From Arthrobacter sp. NIO-1057 (lineage in GTDB: Bacteria; Actinomycetota; Actinomycetes; Actinomycetales; Micrococcaceae): DNA of 64,000 nucleotides. Numbering within the stretch: the first letter of the stretch is position 1; each line of letters starts with the position of its first letter. Made by a program: the position numbers and the translations under genes. Below the pieces are notes generated by a model, which saw only the letters and a list, made by a program, of their open reading frames with translations, was not told the DNA's origin and did no database searches. Positions 5,068-58,548 of this stretch are shown here, in pieces. The stretch spans positions 1-64,000 of the forward strand of contig NZ_FMAT01000003.1 of assembly GCF_900094805.1 (NCBI RefSeq). The letters run 5' to 3'.

Positions 5068-6696
5068 TTATTCCTCGGTCACTGTTGCGACCACCGGTAG
5101 GCGCGTGTCGCTTCGCAGCTCACGCATCAGCGAGATCCCCAGCAAGGTCACGATGACCGTGAAGGGAACAGCCGAGAGGATCGCGGCTTGCTGAAGTGCT
5201 TCGAGACCACCGACCAGCAGCAGGACGATCGCGCAGACACCGGTCAGCAGCCCCCAAACCATGAGTATCGGGCGCTTGGGATACATATTGCCTCCCGAGG
5301 TCAGGGTTCCCAACACGTAGGTATTTGAATCCGCCCCGGTAATGAAGAACAGCACCACCAGGATGATCGTAAACGCGGACGTCACTTCCGGTAGGGGCAG
5401 TTCGGCCAGCATGGCAAAAAACGTGCTGTTCGTATCTTGCAAAGTCGCCTGCCCGATCTGCGAGTGGCCGCTCATCTGCTGATGGATCGAGGTGCCGCCA
5501 AAAATGCTGAACCAGACGCTGAAGACCAGGGACGGGACGCCCATCACGGCAAAGACAAATTCACGAATGGTTCGACCCTTAGATATTCGTGCCAAGAAAA
5601 TGCCGACGAAGGCACCCCAGCTCAACCACCAGGCCATCATGAAGTAGGTCCACCACTGCATCCACTGCAGGTCTTCAACACCCGAGGGAGTCAGCAACGC
5701 CACGGCAGGAAATTCGCCCAGGAACTGGCCCATGGAACGGAAATAGATGTTGGAAATGAATCCGGTGGGACCGGAGACCAGGACAAAGATGCCGATCACC
5801 GCGGCCCCGATCATGGTGCCCTGGCTGAGCCATTTAATGCCCTTGCCCACCCCGGAGAGTGCCGAGAGGGTGAACACTATGGTCACCCCAGCAATGATCA
5901 CGATCTTCACGAACAGGTCGGTGGGGATCCCGAAAAGGCTGTTCAGACCCTCGGCGACCTGCGAAGCACCCAAGCCCAATGAAGTAGTCGTGCCGAAAAG
6001 CGTGGCCAGCACGGTGAACACGTCAATGATCTTGCCGAGCCACCCGTCCATGGATTTGCCCAGCACCGGACGCAGCATCACCGAGACGAGACCCGAGTTG
6101 CCCCGGCGGTGCGTGGAGTAGGCAATAGCCAGGCCGAACACGCCGAACAATGCCCAGGCATTGGGGCCCCAGTCGAAGTAGGAGAATTGCAGGGCCAGTA
6201 CCGCCGCGTCCATGGTTTCGGGTTCGGCTCGGCCATGCGGTGGAACCATGAAGTGGCTCATGGGTTCGGCCGCGCCGTAGCTAATGAGCCCAATGCCCAT
6301 CACGGCGCCGAGAATCATCGCGATCCACGCCCAGGTGGTGAATTCGGGACGATCCGCATCCTTGCCCAGCCGGATGCCTCCGTACCGGGAGAAGGCTAGG
6401 AAGAGCATCAGGACGATACAGCCGAGCGTTACCAACAGGTAGCTCCAGCCAATGTACTGTGCCGACCAGGTGGAGGCTCCGGACATCAGTGCGTTCAGAC
6501 GCTGTGGCGCGATGGCGGCCCAGAGTACAAACACCACGATCAACGACAGCGAGATAAACAGGACGCTGCCCGGACGCTGAAGTCGCTTGTAGACCTGTTT
6601 CGATTCGTTCTTGTCGGCGGCGCGACGCAAGGTGCCACCGGTGAGCGTGGGGCCTTTGTGCGGCCCTTCTTGCTTTTCGTTGATTTCGGTACTCAT
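5068..6696 (-). CDS. BCCT-family transporter (betaine/choline/carnitine type)
   Basis: This membrane protein of about 542 residues has 12 hydrophobic segments and should take up a quaternary ammonium compound. The tryptophan-rich BCCT signature is clear in WWLSWGAFVGIFLARISKG, as is ITGADSNTYVLGTLTSGG further on. A GTG lies 9 nt upstream in frame, but I prefer ATG at 6696 (MSTEINEK). It starts only 37 bp after the SnoaL-flavin reductase fusion ends, on the same strand. It therefore probably belongs to the GntR-controlled catabolic unit, and its substrate class is a clue to the compound degraded there. An osmoprotectant role is the alternative. Confidence 0.9.
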   Translation of the reverse strand: MSTEINEKQEGPHKGPTLTGGTLRRAADKNESKQVYKRLQRPGSVLFISLSLIVVFVLWAAIAPQRLNALMSGASTWSAQYIGWSYLLVTLGCIVLMLFLAFSRYGGIRLGKDADRPEFTTWAWIAMILGAVMGIGLISYGAAEPMSHFMVPPHGRAEPETMDAAVLALQFSYFDWGPNAWALFGVFGLAIAYSTHRRGNSGLVSVMLRPVLGKSMDGWLGKIIDVFTVLATLFGTTTSLGLGASQVAEGLNSLFGIPTDLFVKIVIIAGVTIVFTLSALSGVGKGIKWLSQGTMIGAAVIGIFVLVSGPTGFISNIYFRSMGQFLGEFPAVALLTPSGVEDLQWMQWWTYFMMAWWLSWGAFVGIFLARISKGRTIREFVFAVMGVPSLVFSVWFSIFGGTSIHQQMSGHSQIGQATLQDTNSTFFAMLAELPLPEVTSAFTIILVVLFFITGADSNTYVLGTLTSGGNMYPKRPILMVWGLLTGVCAIVLLLVGGLEALQQAAILSAVPFTVIVTLLGISLMRELRSDTRLPVVATVTEE

Positions 6697-6733
6697 GGCT
6701 CTCACACTTCGTTGGTTTTCAGGAATCTTCCGG

Positions 6734-7708
6734 CTATAGGGCGCTTAGTTCGGCACCGTCGTAGAACCGTCCGGCCTTGTAGACCATGGGTTCAAGGGCA
6801 GCCACCTCGGAATGCTTGACCTTGGCGATGAACACCGTGTGGGTCTTGGCTTGGAAGCGTTCTTTGATCTCTGCTTCGATGGAGGCTGCCGAGCCGTCCA
6901 GCAGCGGGCTGCCGTTCGGCCCCTGATGCCAATCCAGGTTGGCGAACTTGTCATCACCCTTGGAAGCGAAGGTGCCTACGGTGTCACGTTGCCCGTTGCT
7001 CATGATGTTGATGCCCAGATGGGTGGATTTGAACAGCGATGCATAGGTGCTGGTGGTCTTTTGTACACAGACCAGCACCAGTGGTGGTTCGAGCGAAACC
7101 GACACGTAGGAATTGGCGGCCAGCCCGCGAGGTTTGCCGTGTTCGTCCATGGTGGTCACCACGGTGACCCCGGTGATGAATTGGCGGTTGAAGCCTTTGA
7201 GTTCGTCGAGATTCGGCACGCCGGACAGATCATCGACGACCACTTCATCGTCCGCGGACTCAAAAGCTGACTTGAGCGAGGGCACGCCGACGTCTTCGAG
7301 TAGTTCGCTTTGGTCCCAGGTCACCTGCTCGGTGATGATTTTGCCGTCCTGGATCTGAATAAGGTTCGAACCCCGGGTTTCTACGGTGTTGCCGGTGGCC
7401 GGTACGCCCTGTAGGTCGTTGATGAATGTTCCGGTGGTGTGCCAGAAGATCGCGATGGACTGTTCGTTCTCGTCCACGAGCAGGTGGTCAATGGTTGTTA
7501 CCAGGTCAGGGAAGGCTTCACGCACCGCCATGATCTCGGTCTTGAGCTCTTTGAGGCTCGTGATGTTTTTGGATTTTTTGCTGATGCGTTGGAAGTCTGC
7601 GTGGAAGATCTCGTCGAGGGCGTCGACGCGACCCTGATCCCAGGCTGCCTCCCAAGCGTTAACTAGTGATTCTTTGAGGGGCTGAAGTGAATTTACGATT
7701 TGTTGCAT
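6734..7708 (-). CDS. SnoaL-like/flavin reductase fusion protein
   Basis: This 324-residue protein has two parts. Residues 1 to about 150 look like a SnoaL/NTF2-type ester-cyclase fold (NAWEAAWDQGRVDALDEIF, IFWHTTGTF). Residues about 165-324 are a flavin reductase domain of the FMN-binding split-barrel type (RQFITGVTVVTT, LEPPLVLVCV, HLGINIMSNGQ). The reductase half should supply reduced FMN to the luciferase-like monooxygenase of the divergent operon. The SnoaL half may act on its product or hold the complex together. The ATG overlaps one of the three GntR operators, and no Shine-Dalgarno is visible, so the mRNA may be leaderless. BCCT follows downstream. Confidence 0.82.
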   Translation of the reverse strand: MQQIVNSLQPLKESLVNAWEAAWDQGRVDALDEIFHADFQRISKKSKNITSLKELKTEIMAVREAFPDLVTTIDHLLVDENEQSIAIFWHTTGTFINDLQGVPATGNTVETRGSNLIQIQDGKIITEQVTWDQSELLEDVGVPSLKSAFESADDEVVVDDLSGVPNLDELKGFNRQFITGVTVVTTMDEHGKPRGLAANSYVSVSLEPPLVLVCVQKTTSTYASLFKSTHLGINIMSNGQRDTVGTFASKGDDKFANLDWHQGPNGSPLLDGSAASIEAEIKERFQAKTHTVFIAKVKHSEVAALEPMVYKAGRFYDGAELSAL

Positions 7709-54489: not shown

Positions 54490-55611
54490 TTAGGAGCAGG
54501 TGAAGTCTCTCGCGAGCAGCAGCCCGGGGTGGTAAACGATGGTGCGAGTCGGAGAGTCCGCCACCGGCGAGACCCACCCAATATTGCTGCCGCTTTCAGT
54601 GACGTCTTTGTTATCGGTGGTGTAAACAACCAGGAGCTTTATTTCCATACTCTGGGCTCCACCTGAAGTGATGAGCCCCAACAGGTTGAAACCAGGTCCA
54701 TAGGCAACAGATGTGTCCCCGGGAGCCAGATTCGTATAACCATAACTAGACGCCCCAGTCTTAGCCCTGATCACCAAGCGCGCTCCCGAGGGGAGTTGTT
54801 GCGCGGGCCATGACACGGTAGCTGTGGTGAGCAATAGCCCAGATTCTACGCAAGCCAAAGAGCCCGTCGCCGGCTGAACCTTATTCGCCTGAATCGCAGC
54901 AGATGCAGTGGCTGAACCGGTAAACGCTGCATGAGTGGTTTCGCTTTTCGGTACCTGCAAAACCAATGCACCCAGCAACACTGTCACGGCCACTCCGCCA
55001 ATGATTCGGGAGAGATTGCCTAGTTTCTTTCGCCCCGCTGTTCCGCGATGTGAATCTTGCTCACTGGGCTCCTCAGATTGGGAGCCGGGCAGTTCTTCAT
55101 TTGAATCATATGGCTTGGAACCATTTCGCCAGAACGCAATATACAAAAGGTACCCACACAGCAGAATGCCAAGGGCATAAGCCCATGGTTGGCTCAGCCA
55201 AGTGACAACGTAGCCAAGACCGGGAACACTCAAGAACAGGTGATCCACTTGTTCGACGCTGTAGGTTTCTATGTCGGGAACTGGGTTGGCATCGCCTTTG
55301 AGAACCAGCCCTTCGGAGGTGGTCTCAACAACTCGATGGGTAATGCGTTCCCCCTGGGAATTGACCACTGACACCACATCGCCAACGTTAACTTCCTCTA
55401 CCGAGGCGGGCACCGCCAATCCCAAGGCGCCAGCAGGTATTCCCGGTCCCATAGATCCCGAGACAAATACCAAAGGCTTTATGCCAAAGACCATGGCCAA
55501 CACCGCCATAATCAGGCAAAGAATTCCAAGTCCGGCACCTAAGTTCAACAAGAATCGCTGAAACGGCCGGAGCGATGATTTGCTGCCTTGCACCGTTTGT
55601 TGACTACGCAT
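54490..55611 (-). CDS. SipW-type signal peptidase fused to its own SipW-type secreted domain
   Basis: This 373-residue protein has two halves. Residues 1-165 are an S26B/SipW-type signal peptidase: TM1 about 21-44, Ser53 in SGSMGP, His92 in ITHRVV, Asp107 in KGDANP, and TM2 about 143-160. After an acidic linker (163-192) and a basic RKKLGNLSR, a third hydrophobic stretch (203-221) ends in THAAFTGSATASAAIQANK. That is a SipW-type signal-peptide end, followed by a secreted beta-rich domain of about 130 residues with two cysteines. So a peptidase and a probable substrate share one chain. ATG 55611 lies 1 nt after the previous stop. It is the last gene of the six-gene operon. Confidence 0.85.
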   Translation of the reverse strand: MRSQQTVQGSKSSLRPFQRFLLNLGAGLGILCLIMAVLAMVFGIKPLVFVSGSMGPGIPAGALGLAVPASVEEVNVGDVVSVVNSQGERITHRVVETTSEGLVLKGDANPVPDIETYSVEQVDHLFLSVPGLGYVVTWLSQPWAYALGILLCGYLLYIAFWRNGSKPYDSNEELPGSQSEEPSEQDSHRGTAGRKKLGNLSRIIGGVAVTVLLGALVLQVPKSETTHAAFTGSATASAAIQANKVQPATGSLACVESGLLLTTATVSWPAQQLPSGARLVIRAKTGASSYGYTNLAPGDTSVAYGPGFNLLGLITSGGAQSMEIKLLVVYTTDNKDVTESGSNIGWVSPVADSPTRTIVYHPGLLLARDFTCS

Positions 55612-55612
55612 C

Positions 55613-56188
55613 TTATGACCCCACGCTCGAAGTGAAGTCCAAAGAAATGGTGGTTGAAGCACCTTGTAGTGCGTTGGCTGCGGTCAGCGGAAGTGAATAT
55701 TGAACGCACAGAGATTCATTGGCTCCCGTGGCCAGAGGTCGCGTGGCCGAAGCACTCCCAAAACTCGTTCCCGTGTTCTTAGTCATCAGCGTGGTTCCAC
55801 CCGAGCAGGTGACGTTCGAGCCCGAACCACTCAAAGTCGCACCAGTTTTCACCAGGATGGTTAGTGCAGACCCTAAGGTCGCACCTCCTGATTCTGTAAT
55901 TTTTCCTTGGAAAGAATAGGGTGCGGAAATAGACCCGGTGTTCTTCACAACCACTACCGAAGCAGAGCTTGCCCCCGGAAATAGATTGTTACCGTTAATC
56001 GGCATTTGGTAGCTCGCCGATGTTGCACTACCTGTCGTAGCGCCAACCCCCAGTGCAACCGTTGCCGTGCTGATGTTCGAAGTGGCAGTAGCTTGGCCGG
56101 TCCAAGAAGCCAGCGTTGAGACCGCACCAAAGCCAACGAGGATTCCCAACGACAATATCGCCTTGACGCGTATTGACTTACCGCTCAT
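55613..56188 (-). CDS. Secreted protein with SipW-type signal peptide
   Basis: This 191-residue protein begins MSGKSIRVKAILSLGILVGFG (shortened here) and ends the signal in ASWTGQATATSNIS, the A-x-W/F-T-x-x-A pattern of SipW-cognate signals. The mature part is Ser/Thr/Gly-rich and beta-like, with paired cysteines (NVTCSGG, ESLCVQYS). TasA/CalY-type fibre proteins share this design, but real homology to TasA is not clear. It overlaps the LANTG gene by 11 bp and is followed by the peptidase-fusion gene after 1 nt. It is probably processed by one of the two operon peptidases. Confidence 0.82.
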   Translation of the reverse strand: MSGKSIRVKAILSLGILVGFGAVSTLASWTGQATATSNISTATVALGVGATTGSATSASYQMPINGNNLFPGASSASVVVVKNTGSISAPYSFQGKITESGGATLGSALTILVKTGATLSGSGSNVTCSGGTTLMTKNTGTSFGSASATRPLATGANESLCVQYSLPLTAANALQGASTTISLDFTSSVGS

Positions 56189-56834
56189 GCTTTGCCTCCC
56201 TCCCTTGGGCAATTCTTTGATGCCGGTCTCGACTTGCACCTAGCGCAATGCTTCCTGCGACTAGAGATCCCAATGCCATCAGTAGCCAATGGCTACTAAT
56301 TCCTGTATTGGCCAGTTCGTCCTTTTCTTCTGGATCTGGCGCTTGAGGCGATGGATCTTGTGGCCCCTGGCTCGGCGGTTGATCGCCATCGTAGGTTTCC
56401 ACGGCATCAATGCGCACCTGCAATGATCGCTCCTGCCGATCTTCAGCTAATTTATCTGCTGACCACGGCAGTCCAATTCTGAGCTCAAACTTCTTGGCTT
56501 GCGCAGGTTGCAGTCTAGCTACCGATGCGTTGACGGTTTCAAAATACATCCTGGTAGAAGCCTCCGGTGCAACAGGTTGAACCGTGACTTCGATTCCGGT
56601 GGGGCGATCATTACGCACCCACAATGATCTAATGATCTCGTCCCCTGGCACCAGGGTCGACTCATCTTCGAAAAGCTGGGGAGGGTTCCGAGAGTACGCT
56701 TGCCCATCCACGCTGTAGCTCAAGCCCTTTTCTGCGGAGGAAGCGGAGGCTCTGGGGACACTAGCACCTGGAACTACCTGTAGGACAACGGACAGGAGTG
56801 CGGCACACAGTGAGACACGCAGTATGTTCTTCAT
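56178..56834 (-). CDS. Cell-wall-anchored surface protein with LANTG sorting signal
   Basis: This 218-residue protein has an ordinary Sec signal peptide (MKNILRVSLCAALL, cleavage near ASA-SS), then a beta-sandwich-like region (about 38-150) and a Pro-rich spacer. The sorting signal LANTG (about 183-187) is followed by a hydrophobic helix and basic tail. LAxTG is the motif of class E sortases of high-GC Gram-positives, and no sortase gene lies in this window. It sits between the first peptidase and the SipW-type secreted protein and may form the wall anchor of their assembly. Confidence 0.85.
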   Translation of the reverse strand: MKNILRVSLCAALLSVVLQVVPGASVPRASASSAEKGLSYSVDGQAYSRNPPQLFEDESTLVPGDEIIRSLWVRNDRPTGIEVTVQPVAPEASTRMYFETVNASVARLQPAQAKKFELRIGLPWSADKLAEDRQERSLQVRIDAVETYDGDQPPSQGPQDPSPQAPDPEEKDELANTGISSHWLLMALGSLVAGSIALGASRDRHQRIAQGREAKHER

Positions 56835-57397
56835 CGTTGCTTACCCTGCCTTTCGCGCCAGGCCCCAACGAACATCACCAGGGAGTACACAATCAATCCA
56901 CCAGCAACGACCCAGGTCAGCCACGTTCGTTGTTGCATAGATAAGGCACTATTGACGTAACCCAAGAGTGGGAGGGAATACCAGAGTTTGCCCCGAATTT
57001 GTTCGCTGCGCACCGGATCATCCACGGAGTTGTTGGCATCTCCTTGGAAGATGATCCGCTGTTCACCGCTCAGGTTTGTTCCCATAGAGACGACCCGATG
57101 CGTAACGACTTCTGGCTCACCTGATTTCAACTGGTACGTCGCCACATCGCCAATATGAAGTTCTTTCGGATCCAGCGGCTTCACGACCGCCAAGGTGCCG
57201 GGAGGAAAGTTCGGGCGCATCGAACCGGTGAGCACCGTGTAGGCGGTGGCTCCGCCCAGTTTTGGAATCACAATCATGAGTGCAATAAGAGCGAGCACGA
57301 TAAAGAGCACAAGCCACGAAATGATCTGGCCGCACCACCACAAGATTCCTGTCTTTTGTGGCCGTTCACCACCGCGAATTCGCTCTTGAACGCTCAT
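56831..57397 (-). CDS. SipW-type signal peptidase I
   Basis: This 188-residue S26B (ER-type) signal peptidase has TM1 about 18-45, nucleophile Ser59 in LTGSMRP, His100 in VTHRVV, Asp120 in FQGDANN, and TM2 about 158-178. The Ser/His pair replaces the Ser/Lys pair of ordinary Lep peptidases. ATG 57397 (MSVQERIRGG) overlaps the previous stop. It likely processes the SipW-type signal peptides of the operon's secreted proteins at the outer membrane face. Both ends overlap neighbours by 4 bp, so expression is coupled. Confidence 0.9.
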   Translation of the reverse strand: MSVQERIRGGERPQKTGILWWCGQIISWLVLFIVLALIALMIVIPKLGGATAYTVLTGSMRPNFPPGTLAVVKPLDPKELHIGDVATYQLKSGEPEVVTHRVVSMGTNLSGEQRIIFQGDANNSVDDPVRSEQIRGKLWYSLPLLGYVNSALSMQQRTWLTWVVAGGLIVYSLVMFVGAWRERQGKQR

Positions 57398-57993: not shown

Positions 57994-58548
57994 TTACGAA
58001 CGGACCTGATCCAAGGTCAGTGTCAGGGCCTGAAGGTCTACCACTTGGTCATAGGTCGATGGTGGTGTGTCTCCCACCGCACCCTCGTCGAAGGTGACGG
58101 TGATGAGGAACGGAACAGCATAAGTACCTGGTTCAGCGAAGCTCAGGGTTCCATCAGTTTCTTCGGTGATTCCCGGCGCCGATGCGTCTACCTTGAGGTC
58201 AACGGTGACGTAGTCTGCAAGGCCCTTCAAATCAGTAGCTTCCTGATCAACGCTGAGCACGCCGGCAATGTTCTTGCCTTCAGCATCAATGGTGGCGGTC
58301 TGGCTGAAAGTCACGACATCGCCAGGAACAAGTTGCTGGGTCCTTGGATCGAATGGCTCAGGTGCATCCGGGTTGCTGATGTCCTGCCATTGGCCGGTTC
58401 CGGTGGTCGTCAGGTTCAAATGGCCTGATTCGACGGTACCTGCGTCAATGGTCTGAGTTGCTTGCCAACGTGCAATCGTTCCCGCACCACCGAGTAGCAG
58501 AGCTCCAGCTGCAACGGCGGCGATGGTTGCCTTGGTTACTTTTTTCAT
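57994..58548 (-). CDS. Alternate-type signal peptide exported protein (RER_14450-like)
   Basis: This 184-residue first gene of the operon begins MKKVTKATIAAVAAGALLLG, GAGTIARWQATQTIDAGTV, the signature of the 'alternate signal-mediated exported protein' group that occurs beside SipW-type peptidases in actinobacteria. The mature part has alternating beta-like segments (GHLNLTTTGTGQW, VVTFSQTATIDAEGKN) as in pilin- or TasA-like subunits. AGGAA lies before the ATG. It is likely the major secreted subunit, since it comes first and alone has a non-overlapping end. Confidence 0.87.
   Translation of the reverse strand: MKKVTKATIAAVAAGALLLGGAGTIARWQATQTIDAGTVESGHLNLTTTGTGQWQDISNPDAPEPFDPRTQQLVPGDVVTFSQTATIDAEGKNIAGVLSVDQEATDLKGLADYVTVDLKVDASAPGITEETDGTLSFAEPGTYAVPFLITVTFDEGAVGDTPPSTYDQVVDLQALTLTLDQVRS

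What the first reader, a model, noticed from the sequence alone, without database searches (positions are those of the whole stretch)
54490..55611. Signal peptidase covalently fused to a SipW-type substrate
After a full peptidase with Ser53, His92 and Asp107, the chain has an acidic linker, a basic patch, a third hydrophobic segment and the THA-AFTGSATA cleavage pattern, then a secreted domain. Cleavage by itself or its sibling would release the domain and leave the peptidase in the membrane. This would be a built-in processing reporter, stoichiometric subunit or anchor.
Basis: partly seen in the sequence, partly recalled or inferred. Interest (0 to 1): 0.75.

Follow-up and report, generated by a model that had tools for sequence, protein, structure and literature searches.

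The report
Signal peptidase fused to its substrate
In many actinobacteria an enzyme that trims exported proteins is made as one chain with an exported protein carrying that kind of enzyme's own cutting signal, so the chain is probably cut in two at the cell surface, perhaps by itself.

Summary
Confirmed and extended. The ORF 54490-55611(-) is one intact 373-aa gene: an ER/archaeal-type (SipW/SEC11-like) signal peptidase with Ser53/His92/Asp107, a linker, a third TM segment, the TasA-like site T-H-A|A-F, then an Fn3-like ectodomain with two conserved Cys. It is no sequencing error: the fusion is intact in 12 of 18 genomes of its genus (Glutamicibacter) and occurs in other Micrococcaceae, Nocardioides, Marmoricola, Rhodococcus and Williamsia. 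Relatives carry the same ectodomain as a separate gene with its own signal sequence near the peptidase gene, so the third TM looks like a former signal sequence. Linker and TM3 diverge, but P1 Ala (41/42) and aromatic P2' (39/42) are kept. A second fusion kind joins the same peptidase subfamily to an LPXTG-type surface protein. The operon (TasA-like protein, SipW1, SipW-type substrates, SipW2-Fn3) is conserved around the fusions examined. Best reading: a membrane polyprotein cut at the internal site, by itself or its sibling, giving a 3-TM peptidase and a secreted Fn3 subunit of a TasA-like surface system. Cleavage is inferred, not shown. New variant of a known kind; not found described in the open-access library searched.

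The parts
54490..55611 (-). SipW2-Fn3 fusion gene, 373 aa plus stop
55486..55566 (-). TM1 (residues 16-42)
   Evidence: AF2 helix 16-42
55189..55485 (-). peptidase domain (residues 43-141) with Ser53, His92, Asp107
   Evidence: TIGR02228; SEC11A/SEC11C profile matches; Foldseek top hit human SPC-C catalytic chain; residues invariant
55132..55188 (-). TM2 (residues 142-160)
   Evidence: AF2 helix 142-160
55015..55131 (-). acidic then basic linker (residues 161-199), fast evolving
54958..55014 (-). TM3 = internal signal sequence (residues 200-218)
   Evidence: AF2 helix 200-218, low confidence; aligns with the signal sequences of separate homologues
54922..54936 (-). SipW-type site T226-H-A228|A229-F230; predicted cut between 54928 and 54927
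   Evidence: same P3, P1, P1', P2' as TasA TWA-AFND (PMC10269814)
54493..54927 (-). secreted Fn3-like ectodomain (residues 229-373), Cys254 and Cys372 conserved
   Evidence: AF2 pLDDT 78.7 pTM 0.74; Foldseek/VIA lists; profile to FN3con 1.3e-6; Cys invariant in A2
55613..56188 (-). separate SipW-type exported protein (sub1; STLASW site by eye), stop directly before the fusion gene
   Evidence: no TIGR04088 match
56178..56834 (-). LPXTG-like surface protein (ELANTG plus hydrophobic segment plus basic tail), ordinary signal peptide by eye
   Evidence: weak LPXTG_anchor match below cut-off
56831..57397 (-). sibling SipW1 signal peptidase, unfused
   Evidence: TIGR02228 80.5 bits
57394..57969 (-). 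SipW-type exported protein (sub2)
   Evidence: (TIGR04089 and TIGR04088 matches below cut-off)
57994..58548 (-). TasA-like exported protein
   Evidence: TIGR04089 133.5 bits (cut-off 60); TIGR04088 19.8 bits (cut-off 19)

Best explanation
The gene makes a membrane polyprotein. The N-terminal half is the second SipW/SEC11-type signal peptidase of a TasA-like surface operon; the C-terminal half is an Fn3-like exported protein whose signal sequence has become the chain's third TM segment. Shown: intact conserved fusion, split homologues, conserved catalytic residues and site, operon context. Inferred: after insertion (N-in, catalytic domain out, TM2 back in, TM3 out), the T-x-A|A-[FW] site lies about 10 residues past TM3, as Ser53 lies about 11 residues past TM1, and is cut by the same chain, a neighbouring copy or SipW1. 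This yields a 3-TM peptidase that keeps the old signal sequence as its tail, and a released Fn3 protein made 1:1 with it that acts as a minor subunit, cap or assembly factor of the TasA-like system. Because the products match those of two separate genes, the fusion can arise and persist readily.
For: Split homologues near the peptidase gene; the profile of the fused C-parts finds the 4 split proteins (3.4e-18 to 1.6e-11, E-values for a set of 9) and none of the 5 other SipW-type exported proteins put in as controls. One of the 4 split homologues (G021) passes the TIGR04088 cut-off. P3 Thr 37/42, P1 Ala 41/42, P2' Phe/Trp 39/42 in fused rows; P1 Ala 39/40 and P2' Phe/Trp 39/40 in separate ORFs; in the 26 columns upstream no residue exceeds 22 of 42. 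Without an alignment, a small-x-Ala-x-[FWY] site follows the third hydrophobic segment in 37 of 42 Fn3 fusions and in 1 of 11 LPXTG fusions. Between F160 and T226 no column is invariant in 12 genus proteins, whereas T226, A228, A229, F230 are. Catalytic residues invariant. TasA-like gene and SipW1 before the fusion in 11 of 11 further genus loci and 10 of 10 outside loci examined. Aromatic P2' is poorly cut by LepB, and TasA's site is served by SipW (PMC10269814, abstract and passages). In the own genome the only two TIGR02228 matches over the cut-off are these two enzymes.
Against: No cleavage data. The site could be kept for another reason (N-terminal strand or membrane interface). TIGR04088 does not match any of the 5 fused C-parts tried, nor 3 of the 4 split proteins. 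LepB cuts aromatic-P2' sites inefficiently, not never; part of TasA's block comes from Trp at P2, which no fused row has, and two LepB-type enzymes exist in the genome, so the cutter is not settled. Exceptions: P2' Met in 2 rows, Leu in 1; P1 Gly in 1. G010 has a stop in the peptidase part. AF2 confidence at 218-242 is under 50, so the model says nothing on docking. 3 of 18 genus genomes have no match.
Confidence: 0.72

Rival explanations
1. Uncleaved tether: the Fn3 domain stays on the peptidase outside the membrane and recruits TasA-like substrates or places the peptidase at an assembly site.
For: Fusion found across several families; Fn3 domains are binding modules (recalled); the SipW1 clade is unfused in all 26 rows sampled, so only one of the two peptidases carries the domain.
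Against: Split homologues have the same domain as a free protein with its own signal sequence. The site is conserved as in separate proteins while TM3 drifts, which a mere membrane anchor does not need.
Confidence: 0.17
2. Neutral read-together (overlaps with the best explanation): loss of a stop codon between neighbouring genes made one chain that is cut by whichever signal peptidase is at hand; the covalent link has no function.
For: The same peptidase subfamily is fused either to the Fn3 protein or to the LPXTG protein; 10 of 11 LPXTG fusions have no aromatic-P2' site after TM3 (L170 has one alternative), so these look like ordinary signal-peptidase sites; separate, slightly overlapping and fused states all exist.
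Against: The Fn3 fusion is the rule in one large group (40 of 43 rows, branch support 91/67, not starred), though sampling by the ectodomain profile favours such rows. It differs from the best explanation only in whether the link matters.
Confidence: 0.45
3. Sequencing or assembly error, or pseudogene fusion.
For: One genus member (G010) has an in-frame TAG.
Against: Intact in 12 of 18 genus genomes and in other genera; purifying selection on both halves.
Confidence: 0.01
4. The C-terminal domain is cytoplasmic and regulates the peptidase.
For: None found.
Against: Active site outside after TM1, then two further TM segments (TM3 at low confidence); conserved Cys pair; separate homologues look like exported proteins.
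Confidence: 0.02

Closest known systems
SipW with TasA/TapA of Bacillus subtilis (and SipW-BsaA of Clostridium perfringens)
   Same: ER-type signal peptidase encoded with its dedicated exported substrates; cleavage site T-W-A|A-F-N-D in TasA (PMC10269814 passages) against T-H-A|A-F-T-G here
   Different: There enzyme and substrates are separate genes; here the second peptidase is fused to one substrate, which has an Fn3-like fold
SEC11 catalytic subunit of the eukaryotic signal peptidase complex
   Same: Same peptidase family by profile (SEC11A 8.3e-8) and fold (human SPC-C chain is the top Foldseek hit)
   Different: SEC11 carries no substrate domain (recalled)
LexA / lambda repressor self-cleaving proteins
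   Same: Related protease fold (lambda repressor C-terminal domain is Foldseek hit 2, E 7.1e-3) and a cleavage site in the same chain; works-like only
   Different: Cytoplasmic, RecA-triggered, Ser-Lys (recalled); no membrane segments
Viral polyproteins with internal signal sequences cut by host signal peptidase
   Same: Internal signal sequence separates two products (recalled)
   Different: Here the peptidase is part of the polyprotein and of cellular origin
Streptococcus pyogenes SipA and pilus loci
   Same: Signal-peptidase homologue needed for pilus polymerisation (entry title of Foldseek hit 4n31)
   Different: Not fused to a substrate (recalled)

Membership tests
ER/archaeal-type signal peptidase I (SipW, SEC11, TIGR02228) | Score over the curated cut-off | tested here: met
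   60.2 bits against 51.85; 62.6 bits in the genome search
ER/archaeal-type signal peptidase I (SipW, SEC11, TIGR02228) | Ser-His catalytic pair with Asp (roles recalled; Ser-His dyad of the ER type also in PMC10269814 passage) | tested here: met
   S53, H92, D107 invariant in 42/42 Fn3-fused, 11/11 LPXTG-fused, 47/47 separate rows
B. subtilis SipW equivalog (NF046067) | Score over 190 bits | tested here: not met
   45.0 bits: a distant relative, not the Bacillus equivalog
SipW-dependent signal peptide (TIGR04088) | Score over 19 bits for the internal TM3 and site | tested here: not met
   No match for window residues 191-373 or for 4 other fused C-parts; of 4 split homologues only G021 passes (20.3 bits); sub1 of the window does not match either
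SipW-type cleavage site (TasA-like) | Small P1, aromatic P2' after a hydrophobic segment, as TasA TWA-AFND | tested here: met
   THA-AF; P1 Ala 41/42, P2' Phe/Trp 39/42; 37/42 without alignment against 1/11 LPXTG fusions; TasA site from PMC10269814 passages
SipW-type cleavage site (TasA-like) | Is cut in vivo | not testable with these tools
   needs protein data
Fibronectin type III domain | Fn3 fold | tested here: met
Fibronectin type III domain | Pfam Fn3 model over its cut-off | tested here: not met
   No Fn3 model reported at E up to 1 for the single protein
TasA/camelysin family | Homology of the fused ectodomain to the TasA-like operon protein | tested here: inconclusive
   The profile of fused C-parts did not report the TasA-like proteins at E up to 10; the folds were not compared directly

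The most novel reading that the evidence does not exclude
A cell-encoded self-processing signal peptidase: the chain cleaves its own internal signal sequence in cis, and this one-time cut both releases the Fn3 subunit and frees the active site to serve TasA-like substrates, so peptidase activation, subunit export and stoichiometry are coupled.
Probability: 0.25. Interest if true: 0.8.

Novelty: new variant of a known kind. Interest (0 to 1): 0.62.

Why it matters
Signal peptidases are treated as stand-alone enzymes that meet substrates in the membrane (recalled). Here a subfamily spread over at least three named actinobacterial families is built as one chain with an exported protein that carries the peptidase's own kind of cleavage site. 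That makes cis against trans cleavage directly testable, points to a TasA-like surface operon in actinobacteria with two SipW peptidases of which only one is fused in my sample, and offers a natural design for 1:1 coupled export.

Tried and rejected
Pfam Peptidase_S26 scored below cut-off, so NCBIfam and PDB profiles were used instead. Single-sequence blastp of fused C-parts against the split proteins was mostly weak, best 1.2e-5; the profile search settled it. The full-length AF2 model is under pLDDT 50 at 218-242, so nothing is claimed on docking of the site at Ser53. TIGR04088 does not match the internal site. Fold searches show Fn3 only in general; no particular Fn3 relative is claimed. 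The Sporosarcina locus L074 has 62% G+C and groups with a genome of the window's family: I take it as contamination (the lower G+C of that genus is recalled). Plasmid search: 3 records, peptidase part only. In the Arthrobacter arilaitensis genome paper, searched for six terms, SipW does not occur.

Limits. One search translated 40 of the 79 loci. Searches examined the 30 and 28 loci returned, not every place listed. These loci were found with the ectodomain profile, so fused-to-separate ratios are biased. That profile includes the signal region and also matches some other SipW-type ORFs weakly (E 2e-5 to 6e-4). The tree used 92 of 103 rows (11 dropped: 3 duplicates, 8 distant rows); L189 was labelled by eye and is a long branch that the tool warns about. 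The 40 'separate' rows include 2 duplicates and a few other SipW-type or weakly matched ORFs, and that alignment was fitted to a model built with the motif; one search is the check without alignment. Six of the loci that have a separate or LPXTG-fused peptidase (L022, L023, L024, L084, L085, L086) show one peptidase only, so the two-peptidase operon is not universal; an LPXTG-like gene was seen in 5 of the 10 outside fusion loci. 'Not described' rests on searches in an open-access library only.

Full report
Observation. The gene at 54490-55611(-) is open and starts one base after the stop of the upstream gene. It matches the archaeal/ER-type signal peptidase family over its cut-off. A profile of 16 fused proteins finds SEC11A and SEC11C in the PDB (8.3e-8, 4.6e-7), and the AF2 model (mean pLDDT 69.5, pTM 0.42) finds the human SPC-C catalytic chain first by Foldseek, the only hit with E <= 0.001. 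AF2 gives helices 16-42 and 142-160 around the peptidase, a third helix 200-218 at low confidence and beta strands from 253.

Not an artefact. In the genus (named Glutamicibacter through; Micrococcaceae) 15 of 18 genomes match: 12 hold the intact fusion, G010 holds it with an in-frame TAG, and G013 and G007 hold an unfused peptidase. Outside it the fusion is in Arthrobacter sp. MYb227, Rhodococcus (2), Williamsia, Nocardioides (L076, L081, L083, L100) and a Marmoricola MAG; Rhodococcus and Williamsia are Nocardiaceae, Nocardioides Nocardioidaceae. With the ectodomain profile, 42 of 149 family genomes and 30 of 394 class genomes match. Of the 30 family loci returned, 15 have peptidase and ectodomain in one ORF and 15 have the ectodomain in an ORF without the peptidase. 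Of 28 further class loci, 11 are fused by both profiles, and L189 by eye.

The third TM looks like a former signal sequence. In G013 (its contig length equals the chromosome of Arthrobacter arilaitensis Re117 given in the abstract of PMC2991359 as listed), G007, G021 and G029 the ectodomain is a separate gene downstream of the peptidase gene, with its own signal sequence and a similar site by eye: overlapping by about 4 bases in G007 if its internal ATG is the start, after a gap of about 320 bases in G013, after the LPXTG gene in G021, and after a peptidase-LPXTG fusion in G029. The profile of the fused C-parts reports these four (3.4e-18, 7.8e-16, 3.9e-14, 1.6e-11, in a set of 9 proteins) and not the five other SipW-type proteins put in as controls. 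The G021 protein passes the TIGR04088 cut-off; the other three and the fused C-parts tried do not.

Site conservation. Over 42 fused rows P3 is Thr in 37, P1 Ala in 41, P2' Phe or Trp in 39; over 40 separate ORFs P1 is Ala in 39 and P2' Phe or Trp in 39. In the 26 columns before the site no residue exceeds 22 of 42. Without alignment, a small-x-Ala-x-aromatic site follows the third hydrophobic segment in 37 of 42 Fn3 fusions and 1 of 11 LPXTG fusions. In 12 genus proteins no column between F160 and T226 is invariant, while T226, A228, A229 and F230 are. The linker falls to 21-27% identity where the ectodomain keeps 72-73% (window against G016 and G015). TasA is cut by SipW at a site TWA-AFND, and aromatic P2' residues are poorly handled by LepB; Trp at P2 adds to the block (PMC10269814, abstract and passages), and no fused row has that Trp.

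A second kind of fusion. In G029 and eight further loci the peptidase is fused to a surface protein with an LPXTG-like motif, and the Fn3 protein follows as a separate gene; L178 and L181 add two more. 10 of these 11 lack an aromatic-P2' site after TM3, so they look like ordinary signal-peptidase sites; L170 has one alternative such site before a plainer one.

Tree. On 92 peptidase domains, 26 unfused rows form one side of a branch (100/98), among them SipW1 of the window. The other 66 hold 42 Fn3 fusions, 11 LPXTG fusions and 13 separate. Starred branches force at least 4 changes of the Fn3-fused label and at least 4 of the LPXTG label; the tree cannot tell gain from loss. L161 (Fn3-fused) sits among the LPXTG-type subfamily next to the unfused G021 row, which suggests a separate origin (support 93/88, not starred).

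Operon. Order TasA-like, sub2, SipW1, LPXTG-like, sub1, SipW2-Fn3 is found in the window and in 11 of 11 further intact genus loci; all 10 outside fusion loci examined (L074, a probable contaminant, included) have a TasA-like gene, SipW1 and a SipW-type gene before the fusion, 5 of them an LPXTG-like gene. Six loci with a separate or LPXTG-fused peptidase show one peptidase only. The own genome has two TIGR02228 enzymes over the cut-off, both here, two LepB-type enzymes elsewhere, one sortase and one TIGR04089 protein over the cut-off. In Clostridium perfringens SipW is needed for secretion and polymerisation of the matrix protein BsaA (PMC7395162, passages), which fits a surface-fibre role here by analogy only.

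Mechanism. The topology follows from the active site lying outside after TM1. Ser53 is about 11 residues beyond TM1 and the scissile bond about 10 beyond TM3, so cis cleavage is geometrically possible but not shown. I favour cleavage in cis or trans by SipW2 or SipW1, giving a 3-TM peptidase and a free Fn3 protein. Whether the link itself matters is open: the two kinds of fusion suggest that joining is easily tolerated once an internal signal is cut.

Verdict. New variant of the SipW-substrate system.

Noticed in passing
L024 7542-8966; L160, L164, L165, L167, L170-L173, L178, L181: SipW2-type peptidases fused to an LPXTG-like surface protein with a mostly ordinary internal signal sequence; if uncut this would tether the peptidase to the cell wall.
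   Followed up: partly
L013 / L026 around 6259-7464 (G010): The orthologous fusion has an in-frame TAG inside the peptidase part; the ectodomain frame remains open downstream.
   Followed up: partly
L177 991-2004 and 2094-3485: Two peptidase-Fn3 fusions in tandem in one genome of the same class (the second runs off the locus).
   Followed up: no
L075 and L077 (Rhodococcus), L080 (Williamsia), L187, L189: Fusions with long Thr-rich or further repeat-like parts after the Fn3-like part.
   Followed up: no
L074 (record titled Sporosarcina beigongshangi): Contig stretch with 62% G+C whose operon groups with a genome of the window's family; probably contamination of that genome record.
   Followed up: partly
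L022 7642-7687: In G007 the peptidase and ectodomain genes overlap in different frames (about 4 bases with the internal ATG, 46 with the first possible start).
   Followed up: no
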